Part shown: piece by piece, positions 11,830 to 31,674 of the stretch
Numbering within the stretch: position 1 is the stretch's first letter
How the letters are laid out: each line of letters begins with the position of its first letter
NCBI GenBank assembly: GCA_963971285.1
Contig: OZ020244.1
Span: 31,248,001 to 31,312,000 of the forward strand
Direction: 5' to 3'
DNA length: 64,000 nucleotides
DNA from: Astropecten irregularis
Lineage: Eukaryota; Echinodermata; Asteroidea; Paxillosida; Astropectinidae
Notes under the pieces: generated by a model
Database searches by the model: none
Seen by the model: only the letters and a program-made list of their open reading frames with translations
Told to the model about the DNA's origin: nothing
Made by a program: the position numbers and the translations under genes

Positions 11830-11839
11830 TTAAGATGGC

Positions 11840-12357: not shown

Positions 12358-12358
12358 A

Positions 12359-12827: not shown

Positions 12828-12856
12828 CTGGAGAGAATGGCTGGTGAAACCAATTT

Positions 12857-13048: not shown

Positions 13049-13050
13049 CT

Positions 13051-13403: not shown

Positions 13404-13520
13404 AAGCAGCTCTATGAAATCATTGTCCCCTGTTCTTTTGAAACCCATAAGACGACATGCAGTAGACTGCACGTTGAGGCAAATGACTTGTTACAGGATT
13501 CAAGGTGATGGCAGCAGAGA
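13404..13520. repeat. Flanking block duplicated at 34303-34420
   Basis: The block from AAGCAGCTCTATGAAATCAT to GGTGATGGCAGCAGA is essentially identical to 34303-34420. With the adjoining A-family element the shared unit is about 470 bp. Confidence 0.85.
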
Positions 13521-13890: not shown

Positions 13891-13891
13891 T

Positions 13892-13957
13892 TAAAGGTAT
13901 ACTTTGGTTTTTGTCAAAGAAATACAGATTCATGGGCAAAAATATCAAGACAGATAC
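13892..13957 (+). mobile_element. A-family left end, truncated
   Basis: It runs from TATACTTTGGTTTTTGTC to CAAGACAGATACA and then stops at the G-rich block. Confidence 0.8.
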
Positions 13958-14096
13958 ACCGGCGCACCCAGGATTTTGTCTTGGGGGGGGGGGGGGAGAG
14001 GGGGCTCAAAGAAAACTTTTCTCTAGGCCGGGAAAAAAAACGCCCAACAAACAGTTTTTTTACTCCCCCTCCCCTCCTCCTCCTCCTCTCTTTTTT
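13958..14096. repeat. G-rich then C/T-rich block
   Basis: CCGGCGCACCCAGGATTTTG is followed by a run of 14 G and a pyrimidine tract of CTCCTCC type. The start resembles one end of an hAT-type element but no matching other end was found. Confidence 0.4.
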
Positions 14097-14834
14097 ATCG
14101 AGTACGGGCCAAGTACATTTATTTTCAAGTACTTTTTATCGAGTACGGGCAAAGTACATTTATTTTCAAGTACTTTTTATCGAGTACGGGCCAAGTACAT
14201 TTATTTTCAAGTACTTTTTATCGAGTACGGGCAAAGTACATTTATTTTCAAGTACTTTTTATCGAGTACGGGCAAAGTACATTTATTTTCAAGTACTTTT
14301 TATCGAGTACGGGCCAAGTACATTTATTTTCAAGTACTTTTTATCGAGTACGGGCCAAGTACATTTATTTTCAAGTACTTTTTATCGAGTACGGGCCAAG
14401 TACATTTATTTTCAAGTACTTTTTATCGAGTACGGGCAAAGTACATTTATTTTCAAGTACTTTTTATCGAGTACGGGCCAAGTACATTTATTTTCAAGTA
14501 CTTTTTATCGAGTACGGGCAAAGTACATTTATTTTCAAGTACTTTTTATCGAGTACGGGCCAAGTACATTTATTTTCAAGTACTTTTTATCGAGTACGGG
14601 CCAAGTACATTTATTTTCAAGTACTTTTTATCGAGTACGGGCCAAGTACATTTATTTTCAAGTACTTTTTATCGAGTACGGGCCAAGTACATTTATTTTC
14701 AAGTACTTTTTATCGAGTACGGGCCAAGTACATTTATTTTCAAGTACTTTTTATCGAGTTCGGGCCAAGTACATTTATTTTCAAGTACTTTTTATCGAGT
14801 ACGGACCAAGTACATTTTATTTTTGAGTACTTAG
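14097..14834. repeat. 41-bp minisatellite, 18 units
   Basis: Eighteen head-to-tail 41-bp units, nearly identical. The main variable site is C or A in GGGCCAAG/GGGCAAAG. Each unit holds three GTAC sites. A degenerate partial unit follows at about 14841-14857. Because 41 is not a multiple of 3 and no frame has a stop, the array gives apparent proteins of 321 and 307 residues with 41-residue periodicity; these are artefacts. Confidence 0.97.
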
Positions 14835-14857
14835 ATTTAATCGAGTATGGGCCAGGT

Positions 14858-15884
14858 ATTTATCTGCTCATTCAAAAGAATAATTGATCAAGGAATAGAT
14901 CAAAGTCACTTAACATGTAATACATGTACGTTACCATGGAATTGCCCATCTACATGTATGCATAATTTTGCTGTTTTGACATGGGTCCATTCCACTGAAT
15001 TCTACGTATACTGAAGTGGTTCTGCCCTTTATCCTCTGATCACCATCTGTCACCGGACCAGCTGTCATCACAAAAATGTCCGAGATTCTTGTCTAGTGCG
15101 ATTCGTGAAGACTGTCCTTTGCTCCACAGCCTTGTTAACAAATGTTCCCTTCCCCCTTGTACGTACTCTGTGCGTACTGTAGGACCAGAATACCGATATC
15201 AAGGTTCAATCCAATCAAGATTGGAACAACAATGTTGCCCACTTCCTCACCTTCAACACCCCCTAACCCAGATATAGTAGGTACTTTGCATATGCGGAGG
15301 CTCATTCTGCCAAACAGGTGTCAGATTTGTACGGTTTCTATGTCACATCGGCAGACGTGTATACCATTTTTTTTTACCTGTAAAGAGTGGCTCACTTTGA
15401 TCAAGTTCTTCTTCAATGAATTGTGTGTCAGTCTATGCACGCTAAAGGTTTACTGTAATCAAATTTGGGAAAGGTGTGAAAGTGCTTTTAGATTATTGCT
15501 TAATTGCATTATTAATAACTATATACATTTATGTTTTTATATACGGTAAGTGCTTAATTTTGACCCAAAAGTTACAAAATCAGTTCTTGTATGCCCCGCC
15601 CCCAAAAAAGTCCCCCTTGGAACCGATCCACGCAACAATAGCGTGTGAAGTCACCTACAGAACTAGTCTAGGTTGCGCCACAGTATACTGCATAGCGTTC
15701 TGCATGTGACGTAAGCAAGGTTTTTCATCACGAAAAGTGAGGTGCTAAATTATATGTCTAAAATACCTCCTTTTTCTAAATACAATATTTTTTAGCACAA
15801 ACAATGATAGACAGGTTGAGTTTTATAACAATACATATGTATTTATTCAACTTATGAGTTTTGATTACAGTAAACCTTTAAAGG
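14858..15884. other. No gene recognised
   Basis: About 1 kb without a placed repeat. Two overlapping frames at 15089-15549 have no motif. The stretch is slightly richer in C than its surroundings. Confidence 0.4.
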
Positions 15885-16222
15885 TACTACATGTATAATA
15901 AAACCACCTCTGTCCAAAGTCAAACGATGGGAAATGGAATGAATCTGAGGCCTAAATATTTATCTAGAAAAGAGTAAAACCAAAGACCAAAAACAGTTTT
16001 GATCTCGGGGGGGGGGGGGGGGGATCAAAACTCCTGTGAATAAATTTGAAAATACCGTGAGCGTTTTTCACTGTTTTCTCAAAAAGCAGGCCTGTTTTCT
16101 CAAAAAGCAGGCACCTTGTGGGACTGGGAATTTCACAGATGACTGTTACTGCATCTTTCTTGATACTTTTACACCTGAATAGACTGCATTTCTTTCTCAA
16201 AAACCCAAGTATGAAGTTACAT
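15885..16222 (-). mobile_element. C-type inverted-repeat element with a poly-G centre
   Basis: The centre reads AACAGTTTTGATCTC, then 17 G, then GATCAAAAC. In the C-family copy at 27865 the same place (reverse strand) is CTCGGGGTAAGATC. A 21-bp segment, CTGTTTTCTCAAAAAGCAGG plus C, is doubled in tandem. Confidence 0.75.
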
Positions 16223-16362
16223 TTAACTACTAGGAAAATGCAACAGCTCTCTTAACTTTTAATAGGAAATTATCATGAAAAGTGTGATAGAGTGGTTTAT
16301 GTAAACTGATGCTACGTGATAAACAACACTGTTCACCACACAAATTGTGAGACTACTTGACA

Positions 16363-16784
16363 AAAGCCCCTTTCACACCGGGCCTACGTAGAGTTGCGTA
16401 GTGGTAGTGTTGGGTATCGTGTACACCGAAATAAGGCGGCGTACTCAAGGTGGGCTTATGTGCGTAAATGTGCATATAGTGCGACGGTGCATGGTTGCGT
16501 ACCCTGTGCAGAGGCACCGCGTACCTACCAGAATGATATAATTGGCGTACAGGCGCGTAGGATAGCGTATAATGTAGGGCAGATCTAGGGTAACGCGTAG
16601 GCATGGCGTACAGTAGCGTAGTGTTGCACAGACTTGCGTAACAACTGCGTACTTCCGGTGTCCAATGCTCTATGCCTTCTGCGTACTCGGCGTATTGTTA
16701 CGCAAGCCAGCATAGGAACAGCGTAGGGCATCGTAGTCGCTACGCAACTGTACTGTACGTAAGGCCCGATGTGAAAGGGGCTTT
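16363..16784. mobile_element. H-family element saturated with GCGTA
   Basis: The ends AAAGCCCCTTTCACACCGGG and CCCGATGTGAAAGGGGCTTT are near-perfect inverted repeats. The interior carries dozens of CGTA/TACG words in both orientations. The two frames inside (16353-16604, 16394-16588) are by-products. Confidence 0.85.
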
Positions 16785-16799
16785 AGTGACCTTCACAAA

Positions 16800-16927
16800 G
16801 GATGCATTGGTTTAGCTCCCCTGGGTCGATACCAGTCAACCTCGTCCCCATTCTCTGGCTTGTTTTGTGTAGTATAACTCGACCATTCCCAGTACGGGCT
16901 GACCTGTGTTAGCTAAACGAATGCACT
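16800..16927 (-). mobile_element. G-family inverted-repeat element
   Basis: The ends GATGCATTGGTTTAGCT and AGCTAAACGAATGCAC are inverted repeats. Copies at 44823-44948 and 59135-59263 share CCCATTCTCTGGCTTGTTTT-type interiors. Confidence 0.8.
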
Positions 16928-17068
16928 TAGTCTTAGAGGTCTATCACTATAGTTACTACTGTAGTCTACAGTAACTATGGTGTAAAGGTGTTTTTTTCCC
17001 TCTTAAGTGCCAGAGTGTAATGCAGTCATCATACATCTAGATTTATCCAGCATACATTCACAAAATGA

Positions 17069-17230
17069 ATGGAGTTAACTTATTTTGGTCGGAGTGAATG
17101 CTTCTGCAGTAGGTTGTGTCTCTGCACAGAGCTTAACCGAGGTTTCGAGATACAGTTGGACGACCTCATAAAAAATATCAGGGATGAGGTGTTTAAACAG
17201 CTGTCTGGCAACGACGTATTTATCTCGTGA
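17069..17230 (+). CDS. Short open frame or possible exon, unknown product
   Basis: ATG to TGA gives 53 codons. The second half is protein-like, with RGFEIQLDDLIKNIRDEVFK reading as an amphipathic charged helix and then QLSGNDVFIS. A splice acceptor (TCTGCACAG) sits just before this better half, near 17129, and a weak GTGAAA donor near 17227, so the true unit could be an internal exon of about 97 bases. I do not recognise a family. It lies in a stretch free of the repeat families seen elsewhere, between a short element at 16800-16927 and an A-family fragment at 17405. It could be chance. Confidence 0.25.
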   Translation: MELTYFGRSECFCSRLCLCTELNRGFEIQLDDLIKNIRDEVFKQLSGNDVFIS

Positions 17231-17404
17231 AAACCTGGCAGCACTAGAAAAGGAATATCCTATTTTAGGTGCTGTTTATACTTTGTCCTTCTTTTTCGTT
17301 GACATGTACATGTAGTGAATATTTCAGTCTTGAACTGGTTCGTTGCCCCATCCCAGTGCATGTTGAAATTCACTGTTTTCTGTTCTTTGTTTTAAGTCGT
17401 TAAA
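17231..17404. other. No gene recognised
   Basis: Unassigned sequence downstream of the 53-codon frame. Confidence 0.4.
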
Positions 17405-17636
17405 CTCGTGAAAAACGGCCACAGTATTTCTGAAGTCTTTTCTCTTTTATTTTTGATCTTTTAAAAGATCAAAAACATTTCCGATCGTTGTTTTACCAAT
17501 TTCTGGATAAATACACCGTTCCAGGCAAAACATTTTAACGGTATATTTCCATACCACCACCATCTTCATACTCTGTAAGTTATACGTACATGTAAATCTG
17601 TGAACATTTCTGTTTTGGTTTCTTACCTTTAAACAT
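17405..17636 (+). mobile_element. A-family right part
   Basis: It starts at GTGAAAAACGGCCACAGTAT and includes the central palindrome. It ends TTTCTTACCTTTAA with an internal loss in the right inverted repeat. Confidence 0.8.
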
Positions 17637-18438
17637 ATTACACCGGCAACGGACAGCCCCTTCAATAGATCCTGGCCTCTATCCCATGTTAGCTGACACG
17701 ACACTTCAATTGACAAGAAGATGGATGTCTGACATCATCATCGCGTGAACGTTACTCTCACGAGATGAGAGACGATACTCCTTGTAGACTTATCTGCTGT
17801 GGAGGGCTTGCCTTGCCCCCCTCCCCCATCAGAAACAACAACAACGTTCCAGTTGTTCTAGTCGCGTTAGCGTGAAACAATTCGACTTAATGTCCAAAAG
17901 ACCTCATTTTTGAGTGGCAGACTTCCAAATAGTGTCATCCAAATCACTTGCAGATTTCCTTTAATGGTCTGTACTCACATTATTCATCACACAATTGTTG
18001 ACTTTACACTTTCAATTCTATTCAATTCAAGAACATGAAATTTTCATCTCTTCTGAGAATGAAAGTGCTGTACAAAATGAAGAAAAAGTGCAGATGGGGG
18101 AGGAAGTCACATGATTATAATAGCATGATCACTGTTGACAGATTTCCAGCATTGAGAAATGGAATAAATTAGAACACACAAACAAACAACAAACATGGAC
18201 TTGATAAACAAAAACAACGTATATATATATATATATGTAAGTAAACAAGCATAATATATATGTAAATGTATTAATGTATATGTAAACAAGCATAATATTT
18301 AAAGAAAAGAGGGAAAACATGGCATGCAGGGTAAAAACCTTTTCGCATAATGCTAAAAAAAAATGTGCAAGGCTTGCAAGTTTTTCTCACAATCTTGAGA
18401 AATTTCTCAAGGATTGACCAGGGACATCGCTCACTCTA
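17637..18438. other. No gene recognised; small TA tract
   Basis: Contains a TA run at about 18216-18236 and the word AAACAAGCATAATAT twice (near 18244 and 18287). Confidence 0.45.
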
Positions 18439-18560
18439 AGGGCCTGTTTGTTTAATGCACAGGATCATGAAAATTGCGGATCCGGATCCCATTTTAGCGT
18501 ACCCTGCATAGGAGGTGGATCCCTAAATATCGGATCCTTTGCTTTAAACAAACAGGCCCT
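18439..18560. mobile_element. I-family inverted-repeat element
   Basis: The ends AGGGCCTGTTTGTTTAATGC and TTTAAACAAACAGGCCCT pair. GGATCC words recur inside. A second copy is at 25881-25998. Confidence 0.85.
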
Positions 18561-19801
18561 AAGTCTCAAGCATTGACACTTTTGTAAGATTTGTCAAGCA
18601 TAAAAATTTTCATTTTTTTTAGCATCATATGAAAAGGCCTTAAAACAAGATAAAAAGAAAAATTTACCAGAGTTTTAGTGGTATAGTATGTTATACAAAT
18701 GGGAAAAATGGGAAATTAAAAATTTGAAATAACGAAACATTGTTTACGCTCAATTTATACTCATTATCATTTACATGTAATAAGTAGATCAACCACATTA
18801 TCATGAAAACAACATATATCTTAAAGAAGATAAACACAAACAAACAAACAATGAAATAGACAAACAGCACACAAACAGACAGCTAAAATTATGCAGTTAA
18901 TCAAAGCAAACCAACACAAATTGGCAAAACAGATTGGCACAGAGCGCTCAACTAAAATTAGTGGAAAGATCTGCCATTTAATAATTGGCATGATGTGTTG
19001 CTTCCTGTTTTCTAGACGATAACATACCATTTCAAACTGGAATATGCTAGGAAATTAGAAGAGTTCATTTTGTTACAAAGAAAAATGTAACTCAGGATAA
19101 ACAAAAGAATATACACTCTTTCCCAGACAAGCAAAATAACGGGCACATTCAAACACATATGAATAGCAAAGCAATCTGAAATGTCAATATATTGCGTTCA
19201 TGACTTTTGGTTATCTTAATTGAGTCCTGCATAACAACACATAGTAGACCAATCTTTATGCATGGTAGAGTGATGCGCCTTCTTTAACACAGGTCCCCCC
19301 CCTTGTCTAAGCCTTATAACTCTCTATCATCCAAAGTTGAAAATACAGGATGTTTTTCCCCCTATAATTTGAAACTCTGTTTTCTAGTTTGAAAAACAGA
19401 GTATCAGTGACGAAACTGTGACTAAATTAGGCCCATGTACTGATTGATACCTGTTTACTTTGAAATGAAATCTGAATGAAGTGATATCACACTGTATGAG
19501 CCAAATTAGCTTTAAATGATATGACATGATTTGATTAAACTATAAACACTTGTAAACAGCGCCTGCTTACCACTGAATTCGGCACTTACCATTCTCATAT
19601 TACGCTTACTGATTTAGCGTCAAATATTCTTTGCTTAGCCAAGTTTATAGCTGCAAGATAAATCCTTAGTTATGCAAACTATGCAAGCGCAAAACTAAAA
19701 ATTCCTTGCTTATCCATGGGATAGGATCTTGTAAGCAATTTCCTGCTTCAGTAAGCGCCAATTATACGCTTACAGTAAGCAGAGCCATGTAATTGGGCCC
19801 A
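18561..19801. other. No gene recognised
   Basis: AT-rich. The part from about 19560 has repeated GCTTAC/GTAAGC words (ATTACGCTTACTG ... TACAGTAAGCAGAGCC) and may be another short inverted-repeat element. Confidence 0.4.
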
Positions 19802-20034
19802 TGGGCCAATTTCATAGAGCTGCTTATATTTATGCACAAAATTTGCTTAAGCATGAAAAGTCTTCCTTGATCAAACAGGATCAGCAACTAAATGTTCATG
19901 TGATGTTTACTGCTTTTGACTTGTATTCGGCCATTGATTGCCGAGCATAACATTCACAAGGAGTTTTGGCTGGCATACTGGTTTTATATGCCAAGGTTTT
20001 TGGTTCTTAAGTAAATTTGGGTGCCTAAGCAGCA
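19802..20034. mobile_element. D-family element
   Basis: Starts GGGCCAATTTCATAGAGCTG and has both the TGAAAAGTCTTCCTTGATCA and TTGACTTGTATTCGGCCATT words. It ends near GCCTAAGCAGC. Confidence 0.75.
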
Positions 20035-20899
20035 ATCCATGATTCACTCATGTAGGTATTTTGTAGGATACAGTTTTCAATCCAGACTGGACTCTTGTTG
20101 TAATATATTGGGCAAAAGCTACTCCTGCTGTGCTGGCTTGAGTAGCATGTTGCAGACTTCCTATGAAAGTAAAAATAAAATAGTTTAAATGTTTCGTGGA
20201 TTTTAAACGCCATACACGTAGCATCAACATGTTTATATCGGATGGTCTTCATCGCTGACCTATGAACAACCAAACTTAGAATAAAAAATTGAACTCTTTA
20301 ACGGGAATTATGTTTGTATAAATATTTCCATCGGCCACTGGATACAAAATGCGTAAACATCTCAACATCTCGTGGCATGGACGTTCAGGAGCGTGATCAA
20401 GGAGGGATATGAAGGAGCAGAGAGTGTTCTCTCGTCAGGTTTTTGATCAAACCCGCTTCAGACTTTGATGGATAGAGGAGAGGGTCATCAGTCCTTTTGC
20501 CGATGACAACAGGATGCGGCTTGTTTTCATTTGATGCAATTAGTTGCCAATTTTTTACTGTTTTTTTTTAGCTTTAATACTCCCAGCTGTATGCATAGGC
20601 ACATCTGGAAAAATTAGCTTTGTTTGTGTATGTATTAATATAATAATACTAAGTGTTTTTTTGCTTGGATACACAAATATGACGGCAGTAATCTCAGTCA
20701 TTTCCCGAGGAGTGTTTAAGAGGAAAATCGGATTACCAGTTTATTGTTCCCAACAAAAAAAAATTGAAAGAGAAATCTGAATGCATTTTGAGTTGGAGTG
20801 CCATTTATACTCAGATTTGCAGTATTGTTACTAACTGTTGACAGTGTCTTAATTAATTGATCCTTGGGAGAAAGTGGTTTTATGGCTTCTGACTCGTAA
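20035..20899. other. No gene recognised
   Basis: No repeats placed. Several short frames without motifs. Confidence 0.4.
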
Positions 20900-21121
20900 C
20901 TTGACAAAGGCAATACACCGATCCATTAGGCCACGCCCACCATAGCAACGTCCAAGCAACAACGCGCACGCACATCGAGTGTCACGATCGGCCACACACG
21001 AAGCATTGCATACTCCCAACCACCAAACGAACCGATTTCTGTTGGACTTTGGTTTTGCAAAAGGCCAAAAATTTACATTTCCTCTCAGCCAGGGCATCGA
21101 GAGTCAGAAATATAATGTAAG
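20900..21121 (+). promoter_or_regulatory. GC/CpG-richer island with a donor-like end, possible promoter and 5' exon
   Basis: Against an AT-rich background this patch holds many CpGs, a CCACGCCC box and repeated GCAAC/GCAACG half-sites (RFX X-box-like). It ends at AATATAAT followed by GTAAGTAT, a strong donor. It could be the promoter and untranslated first exon of a + strand gene such as the ARH-like gene. Only composition and short motifs support this. Confidence 0.15.
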
Positions 21122-21381
21122 TATAAACACTGCTTGACCATGGTTCAGAATAAAACTCGGATTTGTCATAGAATTGCCTTGTACATACGAAACAAAAGTA
21201 AACTCAACGAAAAGTGTGTAGTAAAGAATACAAAATTAAAAACATTTTGAACTGCCATAATAACCTGGAGGTTGTACGATCAAATCCTGCTTTAGTCAGT
21301 TTTCGTTATTCCCCTTTATAATAGGATAAAAATGGAAAGAAATAAAAACAAAACAATGACGAACTACCTAAATGCAAGTAA

Positions 21382-21830
21382 TTGAAAAGTGAACAAAGCA
21401 AAAATGACTGGAGCAGAATTCGAACTGGCGACCTCCTGAATACGGTACAGGTGCTCTTCCAACTGAGCCGTCCAGCCCTGCATTGGTGGTGACCCCAATA
21501 GTCAATTATCTTTGTTCGTTTGATTTGATTTGAAAGGGTTAATTACGAAAAAAAAAATCAATTTCACAGCCAGAGGCTGAATTACATGATTTGTACAGGA
21601 TTTAAAAAACATCAAAATACCAAATAAAACATCAATTGAATAAACAAAAATAATATACCAACAACACACTAAAAAAAAAATTGAAAAGGCATTGTGGTAA
21701 AACAGGAAAATTAATCTTAAGAAGAAATACATATAAAAAACAAAAAAGGGGCAGAATTATGCCCACAAATTATGCCCTGTCAGAAGCCATGAAACCACGC
21801 ACACACTGCCATATCCCAAGGATATTAGAG
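21382..21830 (-). mobile_element. tRNA-headed SINE (type 2) interrupted by an AT-rich insert
   Basis: The head (21405-21480, minus) has degraded A and B boxes relative to 5129-5354. The 5' part of the SINE resumes at about 21781 (CAGAAGCCATGAAACC). The intervening 21520-21780 is an AT-rich insert beginning near GATTTGATTTGAAAGGG, perhaps another retroposed 3' end. Confidence 0.7.
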
Positions 21831-21937
21831 TACCGGTAGTTAGCTCCCCAAACCATGGACCAATGGCAGTCGTTTGAGACGTTAGCGGCAGGAACCTAAA
21901 GTCTCGTTTTGCTAGCTCTGAGCAGGCGTGCATAATA

Positions 21938-22142
21938 CACGGGTTTACACCATGGCGGCCATCTTAGATTTTGATCGCAACTTAAAAACGAGGCACTTCC
22001 ACGCATGCGCACTTTTCGAAGTGTAAGCCCGTCCATTGTCGAAGACAATACACGGGTTTACACTTCGGCGGTTTTGATCGCGACTTCGAAACGAGACACT
22101 ATCACGCATGCGCTTTTTTAGAAGTGTAAACCCGTGTATTGT
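21938..22142. mobile_element. E-family element, two-unit form
   Basis: It begins TACACGGGTTTACACC and ends GTGTAAACCCGTGTAT. It consists of two similar units of about 100 bp, each with TTTTGATCGC and ACGCATGCGC, joined by TCCATTGTCGAAGACAATAC. Same form at 42880-43084; single-unit form at 48768-48876. Confidence 0.8.
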
Positions 22143-22217
22143 GAGCATGCATACGTTGTTGTGCGTGCGCGTGCGCTATCAATCAAGTTCAAGACCCAGC
22201 TCCAAAGTCTCCCATTG
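22142..22217. mobile_element. F-family element, partial
   Basis: GTGAGCATGCAT through TGCGCGTGCGCT to AAAGTCTCCCATT matches the right half of 533-654. Confidence 0.65.
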
Positions 22218-22244
22218 ATGAATGACCTTAATTATTAAGGCTGT

Positions 22245-22367
22245 GTCCCAATTCTCTGGCTGCGACTGCAAATTACGCATGTACCTATGGCAGCCACTAG
22301 CCGGTGACTGCAGCCATTTCCATAGACTTGTGTGTTATTTGTGGTCGCAGCCAGATAATTGCTGGGA
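22245..22367. mobile_element. Small inverted-repeat element
   Basis: TCCCAATTCTCTGGCTGCGA and TCGCAGCCAGATAATTGCTG plus GGA are imperfect inverted repeats around a short core. Confidence 0.65.
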
Positions 22368-22779
22368 TGATCAGATTTCTCAAATTAAAACCTGATTTCA
22401 GATGTTTTTGTTTTGGAATTCAGATTTGTTTTTCCTCATAGGCTGTGTACAAAAGTATAGGAGATTTTCAGATTTCAGACATTTTATGCTCCCTGTCAGC
22501 TGTTTTCAGACATTATTATCATTGGTCAATCTCATCCCTGGAATTGGGACATGGCCTAATTTGCCAGCAGGGTATGTTTTTTTCGAAGACTTTATCTCTA
22601 CATGTTTCTCTGCTTTTCTTTAACAAGATGTGATTGTCATAATTGTATTCGATTTGGACACATCCTTATTAGTTTTTCTCGTCTCCTTTGTTTGAAAAAA
22701 AAGAGAAGCACGGACATAATGAATAAAAATGTAGATGATTTCTTTGATTTGATCAATTCAATTTGCTCACTGCACACTT
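22368..22779. other. No gene recognised
   Basis: Short overlapping frames with no motif. Confidence 0.4.
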
Positions 22780-23146
22780 TAAAGGTACTATTATACTTTG
22801 GTACCATACCGAAACAGAAATCTTCACAGATTTAACTTCCAGGGTATAAAGATGTTGATGGTAGAAACATACTGTCCGTTAAAATTTTTCTGCCTGAAAT
22901 GCTGCATTTTTTTTTCAGAAAAGAGTAAAAACAGTGACCAAAATTATTTTTGATCGTTTAGAGATCACAAATAAAAGCGAAAAGACTTAAGAAATACTGT
23001 GGCTGTTTTCACTGTCTTCTCACAAAACGTGGGCATCGTTTGGGACTGAAATTTTCACAGATGACTGTTACTGTATCTTTCTTGATATTTTGGGCCATGA
23101 ATCTTTATTTCTTTGACAAAAAACCAAAGTATGATATTGCCTTTAA
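22780..23146 (-). mobile_element. A-family element
   Basis: Complete in reverse, from AAAGGTACTATTATACTTTG to CAAAGTATGATATTGCCTTT. The central palindrome has decayed to GATCGTTTAGAGATC. Confidence 0.85.
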
Positions 23147-23639
23147 GCATTGCTTGACGGGAAACAGAAAGTTCAATGCTAGCAAGATCCAGTTTCGTGG
23201 AACAGCGAAAAAGTCTAATTGTGCACAGGCTTAATATGTATGATAAGGGATTTCACGCTAACGCAAGCTGCATATTGAAACTTGTCACGAACCCTAGAGC
23301 AAACGCAGAATATGATGTTGATTGTGTATTAAAGTTACCGGTACCCTGCAGTGGGCACCACCATTAAATTATGCCTTGCTTGCAGTGTATGTGCGTGGTA
23401 TATTGTCGAATGGGGGGGGAGGAATGGTTTTTTAATCACCCTTCCAAGTTCAAGTTATTAATAGCTGGCACTATAGATAGGCATAGTGATGTAGCCTGCC
23501 GTACCGAAATGAACTCAAATTCATTTTAGAGGACTACAACCGAGTACGCAAATAGCTCTCACCAAACGAATAGAAAATGGCCCAGGCATGTTCTTTTTCA
23601 AACTGATGATGTGCTCTTAAATTGGTTTTGTTCATTTTT
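23147..23639. other. No gene recognised
   Basis: Unassigned sequence. Confidence 0.4.
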
Positions 23640-23735
23640 TTTTCTTCACTGTGCGAAACTGTCGCAAACTGCTCATCAACCAGAAAAAAAATGACCTGAA
23701 ATACACAAAATGCTGAGTCAGGAGGGCCTGCTCAC
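23640..23735. mobile_element. L-family fragment
   Basis: AAACTGCTCATC, AATGACCTGAAAT and CAGGAGGGCCTG are shared with 32750-32900 and 42275-42440. Confidence 0.5.
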
Positions 23736-23781
23736 ACAAAGGCCAGGAACAAAACATCATGGGCCCTTCTAACTCTTTGAG

Positions 23782-23895
23782 TATGGGAGACACATTCCCA
23801 TTGGGTCATGCACAGTCTTTTACTGACCTAATTCTAAACATCCTCCAAACCAATGAACTTGAAATTGACATAATTATTCATATTGAGAGAATCCT
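23782..23895. mobile_element. W-family repeat
   Basis: Reverse copy of 10265-10385, sharing CATCCTCCAAACCAATGAAC and TTGAAATTGACATAAT. Confidence 0.6.
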
Positions 23896-23922
23896 CTGTC
23901 TAATATTAAAATGTGGACATTT

Positions 23923-24290
23923 AAGGTAGTATCATACTTTTGTTTTTATCAAAGAAATACAGATTCATGGGCAAAAATATCATGGAAGATACATAACAGT
24001 CATCTGTGAAAATTTCAGTCCCATATGATGCCCACTTTTTGAGAAAACAGTGAAAAACGGCCACAGTATTTCTTAAGCCTTTTCTCTTTTATTTTTGATC
24101 CTTTAAAAGATCAAACAGATTTCCGGTCGTTGTTTTACTAATTTCTGGGTAAATACAGCGTTTCAGGGGGAAACATTTTAACGGTATGTTTCTACCACCA
24201 CCAGTTTCATACCCTGTAAGTTATATGTAAATCTGTGAACATTTCTGTTTTGGTTTCTTACCAAAGTATGATACTACCTTTAAACTACAA
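23923..24290 (+). mobile_element. A-family element
   Basis: Complete, one of the clearest copies. Left AGGTAGTATCATACTTTTG, centre CCTTTAAAAGATC, right CCAAAGTATGATACTACCT followed by TTAA. Confidence 0.9.
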
Positions 24291-25100
24291 CTTAACAACT
24301 ACAAATCACAAAACAAGTAATGACATGAATGCTAAAATACTGTAAATGTGATTTTAAAGATCTCTTGATCAGGCACCGTTCTAGAGCCAATATTTTTTTC
24401 GGGGGCTAGACCCTTCTTCTAACACTCGCTTCTGTTGGTCTTATTAGTAGTAGAATATAGTTTAGCCTACACAACATGTCATGTTTCTCATGTAATTGGC
24501 TCGTAATAACTGAAAAGTCCAACAATTTTTTTTTTCAATTTAATTTTGAAAATTTAAATTTTTTTTTTTTTTTTTTTTTGGGGGGGGATGGGCTAGACAC
24601 AATTTGGGGGTGCTCAACCCCCTCCTCCCCCAAAAAAACTGCCAGGTGAACAAGATTACCAAACTAAATAACATTCTGTCCTGTATATAACCTTAGCAGG
24701 ATTGGGTAATTCTAAAGGAGAAATTGAAACGTTCGGCCTCCATACAAATGGAAATTGCATGTACACGTGTGCATTCATAATAAATGTACATGAGGATTTA
24801 ACACCATACATAACATGGCGAGCAAATTTGCATTACCGGTATACATAACAGCACCCGTGGGTTTACTTATATGTAAATGTTAAGTCAGGCGTACTCATAC
24901 TGTCTAATTTTAGTTTAGGTCAGAATTTTGATTTTAATTAACAGCTTGATTGAAATGAACCCCAAGAGAGTCTATATTTAAAAAAATAAAATTGTCTGAA
25001 ATTTGTTTATGCAACCTATGAATCAAGTTTAGATATATCTGACTACGTACATTGTATATATGGCATTATTTGGTGGAAATCAATTTTTGTGTAACTATAT
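24291..25100. other. No gene recognised; T- and G-rich patch
   Basis: 24375-24650 has a long T run followed by seven G, and repeated GGGCTAGAC. It may be a worn transposon but its ends are unclear. Confidence 0.4.
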
Positions 25101-25607
25101 AGTGGCCATCCATAAAGTATGTACGCACGAAGGGGGGAGGGGTTTGTTACCGATGCGTACACCATGCGTACAGGGGGGGGGGGAGGGGGGGGGTTGAGGA
25201 CAATGCGTACCGTATGCAAACAAAAAATCTGCATAATCATTTCGCGCGAAAAGATGAGAGGAAAAAACGAGAAAAAAACACCGGGATTGATTTGTTTTTT
25301 GTTCTTTTTGTCTTATTCAACATAACAAAAAATAGTCAAATATACATCTGTAAATGTATAAAAACCTGTTGGTCATTCATTTCAGAATTTGAAAGTGACG
25401 TCCCAATAACGGTACCGGCCCAGATTACTGTGACATTTGAATGATGCTAAAGCAAGGTACCACGAGAAGTGAAAAACTTAATGTGGAATGCGTATACGTA
25501 CAGGGGGGAGGGGGGTTGGGACCACTGCGTACGCCATGCGTACAGAGAGGGAGGGGGGGGTCAAAAAAGTTGGCATTTTGTGCGTATGTACTTTATGGAC
25601 GGCCCCA
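25101..25607. mobile_element. Q-family inverted-repeat element
   Basis: The ends GGCCATCCATAAAGTATGTA and TATGTACTTTATGGACGGCC are inverted repeats. Subterminal ATGCGTAC words adjoin G-rich runs on both sides. Frames at 25119-25325 and 25441-25668 are by-products. It ends about 33 bp before the first ARH-like exon found. Confidence 0.8.
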
Positions 25608-25639
25608 TATCACATTTCGCTTTTTCTGTTCTCACATAG

Positions 25640-25857
25640 GTTCTCACAAACCCGAAGTATACAAGTGATCCGCACGGAGCCTCACAGGGATTATGGGATA
25701 GGTCACATGACGACCTGGACAGCGAGTCTTGCGACCACCTTGCAGACAACGCAGCCATCGTGCGAGCGGCCATATTGGGTGTGCCGCAATTTCACAACCT
25801 GAAAGAGGTCGTGAACAACACTACGAGAATTTGCAAAGCTACACACTATGATCCTAG
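25640..25857 (+). CDS. ADP-ribosylglycohydrolase-like protein, internal exon (first one found)
   Basis: This exon opens after the acceptor TTCTCACATAG and closes before the donor GTATGT. It starts in phase 0 and ends two bases into an arginine codon. It encodes 72 complete residues. The middle reads NAAIVRAAILGV and the end THYDPR, matching the ARH/DraG-family landmarks usually seen as NGAxMRxxxLG and THxDPRC. Family members hydrolyse ADP-ribose links on proteins or small molecules using two Mg ions. The usual NG is NA here. The upstream exon or exons, with the glycine-rich start and the first acidic metal cluster (FTDDT-like), were not found in the window; a long intron or a start beyond the left edge would explain that. 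A 507-bp inverted-repeat element ends only about 33 bp before the exon. Frame continuity with the next three exons makes the call firm; the ARH subclass is not resolved. Confidence 0.85.
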
Positions 25858-25880
25858 GTATGTTCATCTGTGTCTAAGTC

Positions 25881-25998
25881 CGAGAGCATGTTTGTTTAAT
25901 GCAAAGGATATCCTGCGGATCTGGATCCCATTTAGCATACCCTGCATAGGACTTGGATCCGCAAATCCGGGATCTTTTGCATTTAACAAACAGGCCCC
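25881..25998. mobile_element. I-family inverted-repeat element, intronic
   Basis: Ends CATGTTTGTTTAATGCAAAG and CATTTAACAAACAGGCCCC. The interior matches 18439-18560 (CATACCCTGCATAGGA). It lies in the intron after the first ARH-like exon found. Confidence 0.82.
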
Positions 25999-26336
25999 AA
26001 TTGAACTTCATTTATCATTTCAAATTAAATTAACTGGAGATTATGGAGAGGGTATTGTTTTACAAATTTGATGGAAATGTAAGAAAAACTCGAGATCTGC
26101 GTCTGTCTGCAACAGAACATAACAAATTTAGCTTTTCTGCAACATGCTGTTTAAATAAAATTGTACATCTGCAACATTTTATACCAAATATGAATATGTA
26201 GGTTTTATTAAGGAAGTAAATAAAGACAGTGTTGATTTCTTTTATCTGTAACCTGATTGGTCAGAAGTTCTGCATTTAATTAGCATAAATTTCCTTCCAG
26301 TGCCTAGAGAGGGCAGGCTCATGTGCCCCCTTTTGT

Positions 26337-26395
26337 TAAAGGGTGCACCACACTAAATAGCTCCAAAATCAATGCACCGAGCTCATTATCATACT
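26337..26395 (-). mobile_element. J-family end fragment
   Basis: AAAGGGTGCACCACACTAAATAG followed by CCGAGCTCATTA is the reverse of the J right end. Confidence 0.5.
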
Positions 26396-26811
26396 GTGTG
26401 TACCCTCAAACGTTTTTAAAATATGCAATTTGGGGGGTCGTGCAATTAATATATTGTGTAATTATGACGGGTTATCACAACCTGGCGGTTCAGTGCTTCA
26501 GCTTGTTGTGGAGACTTGAGATATTTTGGCTTAAAATGTAGCCCTACATTGTTTTGAACGTGGAGGGTTGCTTCATAAAAACCTGCCGGAAGTTGGTTTG
26601 GGAAAGTGGACATTTTGGTTTTTTTTATTCCTTTGGGCAATCAGTACAAAATCTGATTGGCTAACGTACCACATATTGAAAGGAATCAGATAGATGAGGG
26701 TTCAAACTTTTTTTTGAATTATTGCACAAGACATTGAAAGACTTCTGAATGGGATTTTTTGAACTGTGAAGTTGAAGTATTTTACACTAATGTCAATAGG
26801 ACTCTGTGTAG

Positions 26812-27288
26812 GTTGCACCCAAGTAAATAAACTCCCATAGACAACAGTGATAAATGCTAACACTTCAAAAATCATTTAAAAATATACAGAACTCTCACAG
26901 CTGTTCAAGTTGCACAGAAAAATGATGATGTCACCTTTCATTTTCTTTTCATTTGATGGTGGGTTGACCATTAAATTTTTGAGATATACTCATTCTCAGC
27001 TGACCACCCCTAAAACAAGGTATGGATCACTCCAGTCAAAGAAGCCATTTTCAAAAAAACATCCCTCTGCAAAGAAGCTCAAATAGACCCACTTTCTCAC
27101 CAAGTTGCATCAAAAATGGTCACAAATGGAAGCAGAAAGTCCAGGCAGGAGGTCCAGAGCCATATGTATTCAATCCCTTAATTTCAGGGCTCTCAGAACT
27201 CTCTCATTTATAATATATTGAGTGCTTAACTTTTATTAATGAGCTCGGCAGATGAATTTTGGGACTATTTAGTTGGGTGCACCCTTTA
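26812..27288 (+). mobile_element. J-family element, intronic
   Basis: Begins GGTTGCACCCAAGTAAATA and ends TATTTAGTTGGGTGCACC, near-perfect inverted repeats. Matches 12359-12827 along its length. Confidence 0.82.
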
Positions 27289-27864
27289 TTGTTGTGGGTT
27301 TCCAAATAGCTTCATCACTACCTTAGAGGGTTGGATCTAGTAGACAGAAAAATCAACGAAACAAGAAATGATCTGAGATGTTTGCTCTGCAATTAAGTAA
27401 CATCCACCTCCCCCAGATCACAAGCAAGGGATTGAACTCACCTCAATCAAAAAAAACCTTCATTTAAATGGAAATAAACCAAGCTATCAATATTGCATAT
27501 GTGCTGGAAAGAATTATAAGGGATTTATCTGGGATTTTGCGTAGGGGATTTCTCTGTAGTAAACCTGTAAGAAAGATAGCGTAGCGATAGGGTAGATTTG
27601 AATATCATGAGGTATATAAACACTTGAGAAATGGACATATATTTATGCATGGGATTTACAATCCCATTTGGGTTAAACCAGGATGGTCGTGTTTTCATTA
27701 TTTGTTCATCCATTTTCCATTTTTCATTTTTCCATTTTGTTTTTTGATGGGGCAACGTGTTGAATTTCAGGATTGTCTGGCATGGAATCTCAAAGTAGAA
27801 ATCGAACTAGCGGTAAACTGTGATGATTACTGGCAACTTTCTCCCACCCCTTGCCCAAACTTAA

Positions 27865-28222
27865 AGGTATAATACACGATTGGTAAAGGTCACAGAAAAC
27901 AGCACGCACATCTAATCCAGCATGTACACGTATATAAAATAATAAACCTGTGAAAATTTGAGCTGAATTGGACATCTGAGTCCTGAGAAAATAGCAAAAA
28001 AAAAAAAAATTCTTAAGAAAGATGAAGAATGGTTTTGATCTTACCCCGAGATCAAAACTGTTTTCGGTCTTTGTTTGACTAATTTCTGGATAAATACAGC
28101 ATTTCAGGCGGAAATATTTCTGCGGTATGTTTCTACCAGCACCATCTTCATACTCTGAAAGTTATTTGTAAATATGTGAGCATTTCTGTTTGGGTATGTT
28201 ACCAATCCTGCACTCTACCTTT
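27865..28222 (+). mobile_element. C-family element, intronic
   Basis: Starts AAAGGTATAATACACGATTG. Its left half is unlike A, its centre is GATCTTACCCCGAGATC, and its right half (TCTGGATAAATACAGCATTT onward) is nearly that of A. It ends CTGCACTCTACCTTTAA. Confidence 0.75.
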
Positions 28223-28351
28223 AAAAAGCTTCAGTACTTGGCTATGAGTGGGCAGAAAGCTCACAGTGAGGAAGTTAACATTCTCGTCTCTCTTTGGGTT
28301 TTTTTAACTTGCTATGGTTTGATTGTCACAATGTCGTCTTTTGTTATCCAG

Positions 28352-28555
28352 ATGTCAGGCAAGCTGCGTGGTTTTGTCAGTTCTCATTGCCCTGTTACTC
28401 CAGAACAACCAAAACTTGTCCGCATCCTCCGAGTCGGAAGCATCCTTTCTGACTTCCATCGTTGACACGGCGACCGATATGGGAAGGAGGCATCTGTCGG
28501 AGGCTGCGCACCTGCAGGATTTTGACAGCTTCTGCAATCTGCTAGACTTTGCCAG
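28352..28555 (+). CDS. ADP-ribosylglycohydrolase-like protein, second exon found
   Basis: The acceptor is TTGTTATCCAG and the donor GTAAAG. The first base completes the AGA arginine left open by the previous exon, giving DPR followed by CQASCVVLSVLIALLLQ. That is the conserved ARH core helix after the THxDPRC motif, with the cysteine in the expected place. The rest (DMGRRHLSEAAHLQDFDSF and nearby) is the variable acidic helical region found in this part of ARH proteins. The exon ends in phase 2. The intron before it is about 2.5 kb and holds at least three inverted-repeat elements. No internal stop lies in the coding frame. Confidence 0.85.
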
Positions 28556-28740
28556 GTAAAGGTTATTGGGCGCTGTGGCTTGTGTGTCAGATTGGTGGTC
28601 GGGTGGGTCCCCTGCCGTCAAAACCTCCTGAGCTTGGCCTTAAATCCCCTACTTGAGTCCGCAAGATGTCTTTAATTCTAGATTGAAAGGTACAGGGTTG
28701 TTGAAGCACTTTTGAGGAAATCTTGGTATCATCACCAGGA

Positions 28741-29237
28741 TTTTAGGGATAACTAAATAACGAGTAATGATATGAATCGCCAATCTCTGTGCTATCATTT
28801 AGAAGTGCATCAAACAGCGAGGAAGTTCCGTGTTCATCATTTTGTGGAATCAAACAAATTATGACCATTAAAGGGCATGTACACCAGTGGTAAAGGTGAC
28901 AAAGCAGCTGCAGGCTTCTCATAATTTGATTTGCTATGGAATAAAAAACAAACGTGTGAAATTTTCAGCTCTATTGTTCACTGGAAACAGTAGAAAACAG
29001 CGAAAAACATTGCAATTGTTACGCTGGGAATAGCCGTCTAAATTTTTTTTTTTTCCAAGATCAAAAATGTGTTGGTGTTGGTTTTACACCTTTCTGGATA
29101 AATACAGCATTTCAGACAGAAACATTTTTACAGTATGTTTCTACCATTATTGTCTTCATACCCTGTAAGTGTAAGTTATATGTAAACCTGTGAACGCTTC
29201 TGCTTTGGTTTGTTTTCAGTATTGTATAGGCCCTTTA
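28741..29237 (+). mobile_element. B-family element, intronic, with upstream flank
   Basis: The element proper starts at about 28870 (TTAAAGGGCATGTACACC) and ends GTATAGGCCCTTTAA near 29237. Its left half is distinct and its right half A-like. The first 305 bp of this interval, flank plus left half, are repeated at 29662-29967. Confidence 0.75.
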
Positions 29238-29590
29238 ATGGTAGTATCATACTTTGGTAAGAAACCAAAACATAAATATTTAAAGATTTGCATATAACTT
29301 ACAGAGTATGGAGATGGTGATGGTAGATACATACTATTAAAAAATGTTCTGCCTGAAATGGTGAAAATCTTTTTGATCTTTAAAAGATGCTCTTAAAAGC
29401 TCTCTTAAAAGATCAAAAATAAAAGAGAAAAGACTTAAGAAATACTGTGGCCGTTTTCACTGTTTTCTCAAAAAGTGGGCATCGTATGGGACTCTTATTT
29501 TTACATATTACTTTTACTATATCTTCCTTGATATCTTTGCTCATGAATCTGTATTTCTTTGACAAAAGCCAAAGTATGATATTACCTTTA
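29238..29590 (-). mobile_element. A-family element, intronic
   Basis: Reverse copy with a partly doubled centre (AAAGATGCTCTTAAAAGCTC). Its end forms one arm of the hairpin at 29576-29662. Confidence 0.82.
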
Positions 29591-29662
29591 AAACACTTTG
29601 GATTGTCAAAACAGACTTGATGTCTGTTTTGACAATCCAAAGTGTTTTAAAGGTAATATCAT
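29576..29662. repeat. Perfect 41-bp-arm hairpin
   Basis: Arms 29576-29616 and 29622-29662 are exact reverse complements around the loop TTGAT. The outer parts are the A-family end sequences ATGATATTACCTTTAA and TTAAAGGTAATATCAT. Confidence 0.95.
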
Positions 29663-29967
29663 TTTAGGGATAACTAAATAACGAGTAATGATATGAATCG
29701 CCAATCTCTGTGCTATCATTTAGAAGTGCATCAAACAGCGAGAAGGTTCCGTGTTCATCATTTTGTGGAATCAAACAAATTATGACCATTAAAGGGCATG
29801 TACACCAGTGGTAAAGGTGACAAAGCAGCTGCAGGCTTCTCATCGTTTGATTTGCTATGGAATAAAAAACAAACGTGTGAAATTTTCAGCTCTATTGTTC
29901 ACTGGAAACAGTAGAAAACAGTGAAAAAACATTGCAATTGTTACGCTGGGAATAGCCGTCTAAATTT
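29662..29967 (+). repeat. Second copy of the 305-bp intronic block
   Basis: Near-identical to 28741-29045, with about six or seven differences by eye. It starts exactly where the hairpin ends and stops just after TAGCCGTCTAAATTT. Confidence 0.9.
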
Positions 29968-30104
29968 ATATATCTGTTTTGATGTACCATTCATAAACCA
30001 GTATTGGGTTTTTTTTAATCTGTGAGCAGCTGTGATAAATTGACATGGAAATGTCACTCTTGTCCCTCTGATTGTTTTCAATTTGGAATGTTGTCTGTTT
30101 CCAG

Positions 30105-30194
30105 CTGGTCCAGGCTGTGTCCTAACCGATGTAGTTATACATTCAAGCCCATGGCATCTGCTCTCATTGCCCTCAGGTCTGGTATGCACTTCAG
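30105..30194 (+). CDS. ADP-ribosylglycohydrolase-like protein, third exon found
   Basis: This 90-base exon lies between the acceptor TTGTCTGTTTCCAG and the donor GTAAGC, phase 2 at both ends. Joined to its neighbours it encodes SWSRLCPNRC followed by SYTFKPMASALIALRSG. The latter corresponds to the ARH segment normally written GYT[YF]KxxxxxxxALR, which precedes the C-terminal metal-binding loop. The exact phase match on both sides is the strongest evidence that so short an exon is real. The 1.5-kb intron before it contains a duplicated 305-bp block and a long perfect hairpin. Confidence 0.82.
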
Positions 30195-30287
30195 GTAAGC
30201 CAAAGTTTTTGCCGATTTGTACACTCGACCAAAATGTTATCTCAGAATCTTATAGTTTTAATACTCTGGGCATTGATATCGATGCTT

Positions 30288-30502
30288 AGCACAAAAAAAT
30301 GCTTAGCACAAAAAAGGCTTGCCCAAATAAAACAAACCACCATTGAAAATTCGATGTGATATTCATGGTCAGCAACGACAGCCAAAGAACAATTGCAAGT
30401 GATACACAACACATGGAAATTTGGTTGTTAATCCTGTTTTTTATTAAGACAGAAATGTCATGCTTAGCGATTTTATGTGCTAAGCAGCTCTATGAAATTG
30501 TG
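30288..30502. mobile_element. D-family element, intronic
   Basis: From GCTTAGCACAAAAAAATGC to TAAGCAGCTCTATGAAATTG. The interior matches 5416-5601. Confidence 0.75.
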
Positions 30503-30794
30503 ATGAGTCAAGTCGGAGTGGCTTGATTTGAGTTTGGTCATTTGTTGCTTGTGACCCGAGGGGAGGTGTTTGGCAATTGTAATTCAAGTCAACACACAAT
30601 TGTTGTTGACGTTGCGGATGATTTGTATTAGGGCTGATCAGGAAACCCTGGCATTGCCCTCCAAAAGTTTTAAACCTTTACTGTGATTAATCTTCCATGG
30701 TTATACTGGTATCCTGAAAAGCCATTTGCGAGTGAAATCTGAAAAGTATCTGGCTCACAGACTTCTTTCATTGCACATCAAACACCCCAGTTTG

Positions 30795-31012
30795 AATTTC
30801 CCAGACTAAAGGCTATTGCTATATCACATGATTTGGGGCAAGCTTATTTGCATAGGGGTACCCATCTCTGGAATGAACTGGTTCCTTTGTGCCATTCTTA
30901 TCCATTATGAATAGCGCATTGGTGCAGGACGTCTGTTATGTAACTAAGCAAAAGCTTGCCCCGAATCATGTGACATAGCAACATTGTCTTTAGTTTGGAG
31001 AATTTAGGTCCT
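30795..31012. mobile_element. X-family inverted-repeat element, intronic
   Basis: TCACATGATTTGGGGCAAGC and GCTTGCCCCGAATCATGTGA pair. The complementarity extends outward to GACTAAAGGCTATTGC against ACATTGTCTTTAGTTTG. Related fragments are at 7350 and 32025-32110. Confidence 0.75.
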
Positions 31013-31159
31013 TGATGTTTACATAGAGTAAAATAATTAAGTGTACTGGATATTGTTAAATTTTAACTCGCGGAAGGCTTATTGCCGATCTCAAGTCCAC
31101 TCTGCTGTCATCACTGGGATTAACGCGCAACTAAACATTAACGTGGTGGCGTGGGGAGT

Positions 31160-31453
31160 CAGGTTGGCGTTGGGGAGTTAGGTTGGCATAGCGGTTCTTT
31201 CCTCGCCTTGCACCTCTGTGGACCGGGTTCAAGTCCGGCTCGGTTCACAAGTGGATTTGGGTTTTCAGTCCATGCCTGATTCCGTGGGTTTTACCCAGAA
31301 TATTACTCTGGGGTTTTCCTCCCACCTCTAAAACTGTATCTTCTTCTCATCATCTTTCCACAACATGTTTCATCAGGCTTGCGAGCTACAGTGCCTTGGT
31401 CACTTTTGAGGAATCCTTGGTGTCATTACCAGAAATAAATAATAATAATAATA
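31160..31453 (+). mobile_element. tRNA-headed SINE (type 4) next to the terminal ARH-like exon
   Basis: The head is degraded but keeps a B box (ACCGGGTTCAAGTCC). The body has CATGCCTGATTCCGTGGG and TACTCTGGGGTTTTCCTCCC. The tail is AATAAATAATAATAATAAT, ending about 28 bp before the coding exon at 31482. Reverse copy at 56455-56670. Confidence 0.75.
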
Positions 31454-31481
31454 ACATTTTTGTCTCACATCTTCCTCCCAG

Positions 31482-31674
31482 GACGGCCATTTCTCAGCTT
31501 GTCATGTATGGACGGGACAGCCCGAGCAATTCCAGCGTGACCGGAGCCATCCTTGGCTGTCACTGGGGCTATCGCAGACTGCCCAAGGACTGGGTGTCGG
31601 GTCTTCTACCCAAACAGACCCAATGGCTGGACGTCAGGATCAACTCCCTGTTAGACATGATGGCCATACCCTGA
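31482..31674 (+). CDS. ADP-ribosylglycohydrolase-like protein, terminal coding exon with altered metal motif
   Basis: The acceptor is CATCTTCCTCCCAG, entered in phase 2, and the frame ends at TGA. The exon encodes TAISQLVMY then GRDSPSNSSVTGAILGC, WGYRRLPKDWVSGL and a WLD-containing C-terminus. ARH relatives have [EG]GGDxD[ST]NGAxAGALLGC here, followed by the aromatic and LPxDW segment, so placement is secure. The family's second metal-binding aspartate is proline here, and NG is NS. The first aspartate and the following serine are kept. Vertebrate ARH2 (ADPRHL1) is a known pseudoenzyme of this fold, so loss of catalysis is plausible, but the missing N-terminal cluster must be seen first. A SINE tail ends about 28 bp before this exon and another SINE begins about 25 bp after the stop. 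The first AATAAA I noticed downstream is near 33447. Confidence 0.86.

What the first reader, a model, noticed from the sequence alone, without database searches (positions are those of the whole stretch)
25640..31674. ARH-like hydrolase whose second metal-binding aspartate is proline
Seen: four exons in consistent phase encode an ARH/DraG-type C-terminus, but the metal loop reads G-R-D-S-P-S-N where the family has G-G-D-x-D-[ST]-N. Known: in ARH1, ARH3 and DraG both aspartates and the next S/T bind Mg. Inferred: a non-catalytic ADP-ribose binder, or an enzyme with changed metal use, parallel to but probably independent of the vertebrate ARH2 pseudoenzyme. NG to NA in the core motif points the same way.
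Basis: partly seen in the sequence, partly recalled or inferred. Interest (0 to 1): 0.75.

Follow-up and report, generated by a model that had tools for sequence, protein, structure and literature searches.

The report
Animal ADP-ribose hydrolase turned pseudoenzyme
An apparently intact gene in this animal encodes a relative of enzymes that strip ADP-ribose off other molecules, but it has lost most of its metal-holding active site, so it has probably taken on a non-catalytic job, much as a heart protein of vertebrates did separately.

Summary
Confirmed and extended. Window 25640-31674 holds exons 3-6 of a plus-strand ADP_ribosyl_GH (PF03747) gene. Two further exons lie 0.16-1.3 kb upstream of the window, joined by a 25.8-kb intron. 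The six known exons have GT-AG borders, matching phases and no internal stop. Together they give 342 residues that fill the whole Pfam profile (E 1.1e-44). The first coding exon was not found.

The paired aspartates are kept in 31 of 31 aligned relatives and the fourth in 30 of 30 readable ones.

A paralogue with intact motifs lies about 285 kb away on the same contig. It is the window gene's nearest row (99/99), with one shared intron position. Grouping with an ARH1-type gene is rejected (p 0.0003), so the loss looks independent of vertebrate ADPRHL1.

Most likely: a translated, catalytically dead ARH-fold protein that binds proteins. "ADP-ribose reader" is possible but less supported. No RNA, orthologue or assay was available. 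A new member of a known kind.

The parts
25640..25857 (+). Exon 3 of the known exons (VLTNPKY...THYDPR). Upstream exons 1 and 2 lie outside the window at C1:31246705-31246880 and 31247695-31247841 (the window starts at 31248001).
   Evidence: tblastn, splice borders and phases; Pfam PF03747
25748..25753 (+). Asn-Ala in place of the family's Asn-Gly (N145, A146 of the spliced protein)
25844..25846 (+). conserved His of the T-H motif, retained (H177)
28352..28555 (+). Exon 4 (CQASCVVLS...LLDFA)
30105..30194 (+). Exon 5 (SWSRLCPNRCSYTFKPMASALIALRSGMHF)
31482..31674 (+). Exon 6 with stop codon (RTAISQLVMYGRDSPSN...MMAIP*)
   Evidence: one search finds it independently by profile (E 9.6e-4)
31510..31530 (+). 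Degenerate metal loop G-R-D-S-P-S-N (family G-G-D-x-D-[ST]-N); Pro codon CCG at 31522-31524
1..25639 (+). Window part of the 25.8-kb intron between exons 2 and 3; no alternative N-terminal exon found in it
   Evidence: tblastn of the intact paralogue and six-frame motif scan; intron length

Best explanation
The locus is a genuine protein-coding gene for an ARH/DraG-fold pseudoenzyme. It arose by an old duplication of an ADP-ribosylglycohydrolase whose other copy, with the tested catalytic motifs intact, lies about 285 kb away on the same contig. Shown: full-length family match, intact frame over six exons, loss of four of the five acidic active-site residues, coding-like third-position composition, closest relation to the intact copy. 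Inferred: with no carboxylate pair on the N-terminal side and Pro on the C-terminal side, the two Mg ions are not held and ADP-ribosyl hydrolysis is lost. The fold persists because the protein is used for protein binding (scaffold or partner regulation), as proposed for vertebrate ADPRHL1, rather than for chemistry.
For: Spliced protein fills PF03747 1-287, E 1.1e-44. At the six highly conserved columns matching Mg/ADP-ribose residues listed in PMC9738213 the window protein differs in 5 of 6, against 4 of 18 other columns conserved in >=95% of 29 relatives (Fisher one-sided p 0.015); the paralogue differs in 0 of 6 and 1 of 18. GC3 is 0.63, against 0.59 in the intact paralogue and 0.375 in the intron. 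In a simulation of substitutions alone (2000 runs each) 0.1 per site leaves no stop in 2.6% of runs and 0.2 in 0.05%, while the gene's end branch is 1.75 amino-acid changes per column. Pair with the paralogue 99/99, 100/99 with an added ARH1-type row; a shared phase-2 intron inside the Arg codon of D-P-R. Precedent: ADPRHL1 lost three of four Asp, has no comparable activity, and disruption of its former active site gives heart defects in Xenopus (PMC7390403, passages).
Against: First coding exon not found in 28.7 kb upstream. No RNA, no orthologue from another species, no selection test. If Ser for Thr is counted as kept (ARH1 has Ser there), the enrichment falls to 4 of 6 against 4 of 18, p 0.069, and the residue set was fixed after seeing the alignment. 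T53, D291, N145 and H177 are kept, so residual nucleotide binding is not excluded. The fold was not modelled. The relatives in the counts were mostly found by similarity to the intact paralogue or its bacterial relative, which favours intact motifs. GC3 would also be kept by a recently dead gene. Even the ADPRHL1 precedent is not uniform: mice lacking exons 3-4, not a complete knockout, are normal (PMC7390403, passages).
Confidence: 0.7

Rival explanations
1. Metal-free ADP-ribose reader: the cleft still binds ADP-ribose or ADP-ribosylated proteins without cleaving them, competing with the intact paralogue.
For: Asn of N-G, His of T-H, Thr of TDD and the first Asp of the C-terminal loop are retained.
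Against: Most residues reported as critical for ADP-ribose binding in ARH1/ARH3 are changed (PMC9738213 passages); a conserved loop Gly is Ser and NG is NA; the ADPRHL1 model with a comparable loss could not be docked with ADP (PMC7390403 passages).
Confidence: 0.15
2. Enzyme with changed chemistry: a hydrolase or other activity that works with one or no metal ion.
For: One Asp (D291), Ser in place of Thr after the Pro, and the His are retained.
Against: Paired Asp in 31 of 31 and fourth Asp in 30 of 30 readable relatives suggest that the known chemistry needs them. A replacement acidic cluster was not searched for beyond reading the alignment.
Confidence: 0.06
3. Young unitary pseudogene: the paralogue died recently and no stop has accumulated yet.
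For: First coding exon not found; no RNA evidence; end branch 1.8 times the paralogue's.
Against: Active-site residues changed by several multi-base codon differences while frame, known borders and GC3 are kept over 1.03 kb; a gene neutral for long would be expected to show stops.
Confidence: 0.09

Closest known systems
Intact paralogue, G000:C1:30954482-30962095, minus strand (L010/L011)
   Same: Same family, paired with the window gene in the tree (99/99), 32.5-36% identity, one shared intron position
   Different: Keeps DWTDDSDQ, NGG, THADPR and GGDADTNG; its other intron positions differ; its last exon was not identified
Vertebrate ARH2 / ADPRHL1
   Same: ARH-fold pseudoenzyme with three of four Mg aspartates lost (PMC7390403 passages)
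   Different: ADPRHL1 belongs with ARH1 (46% identity to ADPRH, same paper) and keeps the first Asp of the N-terminal pair; here both of that pair are gone, the first Asp of the C-terminal loop is kept and the second is Pro
Tri1 ADP-ribosylarginine hydrolase (PDB 6dre) and DraG (2woc)
   Same: Closest named profiles and structures: NCBIfam NF041672 E 8.8e-12 and TIGR02662 E 1.5e-9, both far below their curated cut-offs; 6dre E 1.1e-9
   Different: Those keep the TDD and DxD ligands (alignments)
MJ1187 (PDB 1t5j)
   Same: Best sequence match among solved structures, E 4e-14
   Different: Keeps WTDD and GGDTDS
mt-SAF23 (PDB 6sga chain FP), named ADP-ribosylglycohydrolase in 9hny
   Same: ARH-family protein with a degenerate metal loop (GGPVCQRS) that also holds a Pro (alignment)
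   Different: Weak match (E 0.04); the Pro sits at the first Asp, not the second; that it is a mitoribosome assembly factor is recalled
Bacteroidota relatives: L024 (MAG titled Chitinophaga pinensis) and L052 (Prevotella plasmid)
   Same: Nearest prokaryotic relatives; group with the animal pair 99/98
   Different: All metal residues intact

Membership tests
ADP_ribosyl_GH (PF03747) sequence family | Score over the Pfam gathering cut-off across the domain | tested here: met
   153.7 bits against 26.2, profile 1-287 of 287
Catalytic ARH/DraG hydrolase | N-terminal T/S-D-D metal ligands | tested here: not met
   T-T-A; 31 of 31 aligned relatives have [TS]-D-D
Catalytic ARH/DraG hydrolase | C-terminal D-x-D-[ST] metal ligands | tested here: not met
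   D-S-P-S; 30 of 30 readable relatives have D-x-D-T
Catalytic ARH/DraG hydrolase | Mg-dependent removal of ADP-ribose | not testable with these tools
   no assay
ARH-fold pseudoenzyme | Catalytic residues lost while frame and family sequence signature are kept | tested here: met
   by sequence only, no structure model
ARH-fold pseudoenzyme | Expressed protein with a non-catalytic function | not testable with these tools
   no transcript or protein data
ARH2 / ADPRHL1 orthologue | Member of the ARH1 subfamily | tested here: not met
   Tree with the window protein held beside the ARH1-type gene of this genome rejected, AU p 0.000326, both rows long; no ARH1 chain at E<=1 for the spliced protein, whereas the C18:16.42 Mb gene hits ARH1 at 2.1e-59
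Selenoprotein J (name recalled) | In-frame TGA (Sec) and a SECIS element | tested here: not met
   No in-frame TGA before the stop in the six known exons; no SECIS in the window at Rfam gathering scores
Pseudogene | Broken frame or splice sites | tested here: inconclusive
   The six known exons are intact, but the start exon was not found

The most novel reading that the evidence does not exclude
Within this one animal genome the ARH fold has lost or altered its metal site at three of six detected loci: the window gene, an ARH1-type gene on C18 and a gene on C20. The window product would be a metal-free ADP-ribose reader, or an inhibitor that partners or competes with its intact sister: an eraser turned reader on a non-vertebrate branch of the family.
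Probability: 0.15. Interest if true: 0.65.

Novelty: new member of a known kind. Interest (0 to 1): 0.4.

Why it matters
ADPRHL1 shows that an ARH fold can become a non-enzymatic protein with a job in development. A second, apparently independent case with a different set of lost metal residues, and with its intact sister in the same genome, gives a natural comparison for what the fold does once catalysis is gone. It also warns that annotation by Pfam alone would call this gene an ADP-ribosylglycohydrolase.

Tried and rejected
Alternative N-terminal exon with an intact TDD inside the window: rejected. Below E 0.1 the intact paralogue matched only four colinear exons (exon 4 at 0.23, exon 5 not at all), and all 18 six-frame [WF]T[DN]D hits in window plus 10 kb looked like one dispersed repeat. 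Selenoprotein J reading: rejected. ARH2 orthology: rejected. First exon: not found. One search filtered for a last base G, a GT[AG][AGT][GT] donor and a family-like end, and gave one implausible candidate in 28.7 kb, within 8.7 kb and with stricter donors, gave four short unconvincing ones. An exon outside these filters could be missed. Phage relatives: none at E<=1e-5.

Literature: seven full-text searches listed no paper that, from title or start of abstract, describes this gene or an echinoderm ARH pseudoenzyme. The lists were capped in three: 20 of 53, 15 of 40, 15 of 5,094 (any two of five words, so it tests little). One search (ADP-ribosylhydrolase plus echinoderm) returned 3 papers. Two papers were seen as passages only (PMC9738213, PMC7390403); a third was not held.

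Rows chosen and dropped: of 90 plasmid records with a match (30 listed) I fetched 8. Of 22 matches I used 20; L029 is the same gene as L024 and L050 a partial second copy. Of 3 matches, 1 was new. One search was given 32 loci; L043 gave no hit at E 1e-2, leaving 31. L054 lacks the C-terminal motif (its frame ends early). L025 and L026 are identical rows, both in the 31. L026 and L045 were dropped (two further pairs above 90% identity stayed); L026, L045, L041 and L044 before the trees.
Full report
What was checked. The window is C1:31248001-31312000 of an unnamed 476-Mb genome. The metal loop reads G-R-D-S-P-S-N at 31510-31530 and the NG motif reads N-A at 25748-25753.

The missing N-terminus. 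A profile search of the whole genome found the family's first 55 positions 1.1-1.3 kb upstream of the window, on the same strand. Reading that stretch gave two exons, C1:31246705-31246880 and 31247695-31247841. All known borders match in phase: 1-2 and 2-3 in phase 0; 3-4, 4-5 and 5-6 in phase 2. The intron between exons 2 and 3 is 25,798 bases. The spliced product (342 residues plus a missing start exon) matches PF03747 over 1-287 of 287 with E 1.1e-44, against 3.2e-25 for the window part alone. No rival N-terminal exon was found in the window. Exon 1 begins at a phase-1 acceptor. The listed frame upstream of it holds no in-frame ATG before the exon, and a filtered search for a start exon in 28.7 kb gave no credible candidate.

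The active site. The FTDD question is settled: the cluster is W-T-T-A-F-D-Q where the intact paralogue has W-T-D-D-S-D-Q. I gave 32 loci (prokaryote genomes, plasmids, two viral contigs) to the alignment and 31 could be aligned. The two Asp of TDD are kept in 31 of 31, the Gly of NG in 31 of 31, the His in 31 of 31, and the two Asp of the C-terminal loop in 30 of 30 readable rows. Among 29 rows left after two near-identical ones were dropped, 24 columns are at least 95% conserved. The window protein departs at 9 of them: Glu to Ala (A17), Asp to Thr (T54), Asp to Ala (A55), Gly to Ser (S103), Gly to Ala (A146), Met to Val (V149), Gly to Ser (S259), Asp to Pro (P293) and Thr to Ser (S294). The paralogue departs at 1. 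A review lists Glu41, Thr76, Asp77, Asp78, Asp314, Asp316 and Thr317 of ARH3 as critical residues near Mg (PMC9738213, passages). By motif position these are the Glu, the TDD and the DxDT above; the Glu assignment rests on motif spacing, not on a structure alignment. Of the six in the conserved set, 5 are changed, against 4 of 18 other columns (Fisher one-sided p 0.015). If Ser for Thr is counted as kept, because ARH1 has Ser there, it is 4 of 6 and p 0.069. Kept are Thr53, Asp291, Asn145 and His177.

Where it belongs. A paralogue with intact motifs lies at C1:30954482-30962095 on the other strand, about 285 kb away; its last exon was not identified. It pairs with the window gene (99/99), and the pair joins two Bacteroidota proteins (99/98) in a 29-row tree. 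The window branch is 1.75 changes per column, the paralogue's 0.97, and the tool flags the window row as long. Adding the ARH1-type gene of this genome keeps the pair (100/99) and the data reject holding the window protein beside that gene (AU p 0.000326; that row is very long, so the test has limits). The two animal genes share the phase-2 intron inside the Arg codon of D-P-R, while the other intron positions differ, so the duplication is old. No other eukaryotes could be sampled, so its date is open and closeness to Bacteroidota is no evidence of transfer by itself. The spliced protein lists no ARH1 or ARH3 chain among solved structures at E<=1; a profile of its relatives does reach both, as expected of one superfamily.

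Gene or pseudogene. The frame is open over 1.03 kb. Third-position GC is 0.63, as in the intact paralogue (0.59) and far from the intron (0.375). In a simulation of substitutions alone, 0.1 per site leaves the frame without a stop in 2.6% of 2000 runs and 0.2 in 0.05%. The three changed Asp codons differ from the paralogue's at two or three bases each. This favours a maintained gene, but there is no transcript and no orthologue to prove it, and the missing start exon counts against it.

How it most likely works. Shown: the family sequence signature is intact and most residues that hold the two metal ions are changed. Inferred: no Mg-dependent removal of ADP-ribose. The best-supported role is non-catalytic protein binding, by analogy with ADPRHL1. 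That protein lost three of four Asp, lacks comparable enzyme activity, and in Xenopus disruption of its former active site gives heart muscle defects, although mice with an incomplete deletion are normal (PMC7390403, passages). The pattern here is different: both Asp of the N-terminal pair and the second C-terminal Asp are lost, whereas ADPRHL1 keeps the first Asp of the N-terminal pair.

Wider picture. The genome has at least six ARH-fold loci (grouping its 10 matches). Three have intact motifs where readable: the paralogue, an ARH1-type gene on C11 and an ARH3-type gene on C18 at 9.76 Mb. Three have altered ones: the window gene, an ARH1-type gene on C18 at 16.42 Mb (G-Q-N for S-D-D, and G-D-G-S-S-S) and a gene on C20 with GGDNCSR (its N-terminus was not read). 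As for the organism: the mitochondrial COX1 on C168 has AAA at two sites where I recall Asn as expected, and ATA opposite Ile in 6 of 10 sites aligned to a bacterial COX1. Of the five AAA codons aligned there, only one faces Asn and one faces Lys.

Noticed in passing
L012 (G000:C18:16416001-16426000), about 5220-6050 and 7190-7330: ARH1-subfamily gene (ARH1 chains, E 2.1e-59) with G-Q-N in place of S-D-D and A-G-D-G-S-S-S in place of G-G-D-N-D-S-T: a second, separate ARH pseudoenzyme candidate in this genome.
   Followed up: partly
L017 (G000:C20:16851001-16861000), 4888-5037: ARH-fold C-terminal exon with GGDNCSR; best solved-structure match is mt-SAF23 (E 1.6e-4). Could belong to the J1-crystallin/selenoprotein J-like branch (names recalled, not tested).
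   Followed up: partly
window 31762-31834 (+) and 5159-5231 (-): tRNA-Thr(GGT) predictions, one starting 88 bp after the gene's stop codon; a third, weaker tRNA match at 21405-21477 (-) from Rfam only. Possibly tRNA-derived repeats.
   Followed up: no
window 14092-14858: Tandem array of a 41-bp unit, 18.6 copies at 97% matches, inside the large intron; it gives long open frames in three frames that look like the repeat alone.
   Followed up: no
window 28740-29007 and 29661-29928; 29576-29662: 268-bp direct duplication at 98% identity and a perfect 41-bp inverted repeat in the intron between exons 4 and 5.
   Followed up: no
window, both strands (e.g. 16132, 23054, 34491, 45287, 55188): A dispersed repeat that translates as EIFTDDCYCI..., 18 motif hits in the window plus 10 kb upstream; its FTDD is a false friend when hunting the ARH motif.
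   Followed up: no
G000:C131:32162-33484 (L060): A COX1 read by the standard code without internal stops on a small-numbered-size contig of this animal assembly, beside the mitochondrial COX1 on C168 and a partial copy on C25 with TGA codons: looks like a bacterial contaminant or symbiont contig.
   Followed up: no
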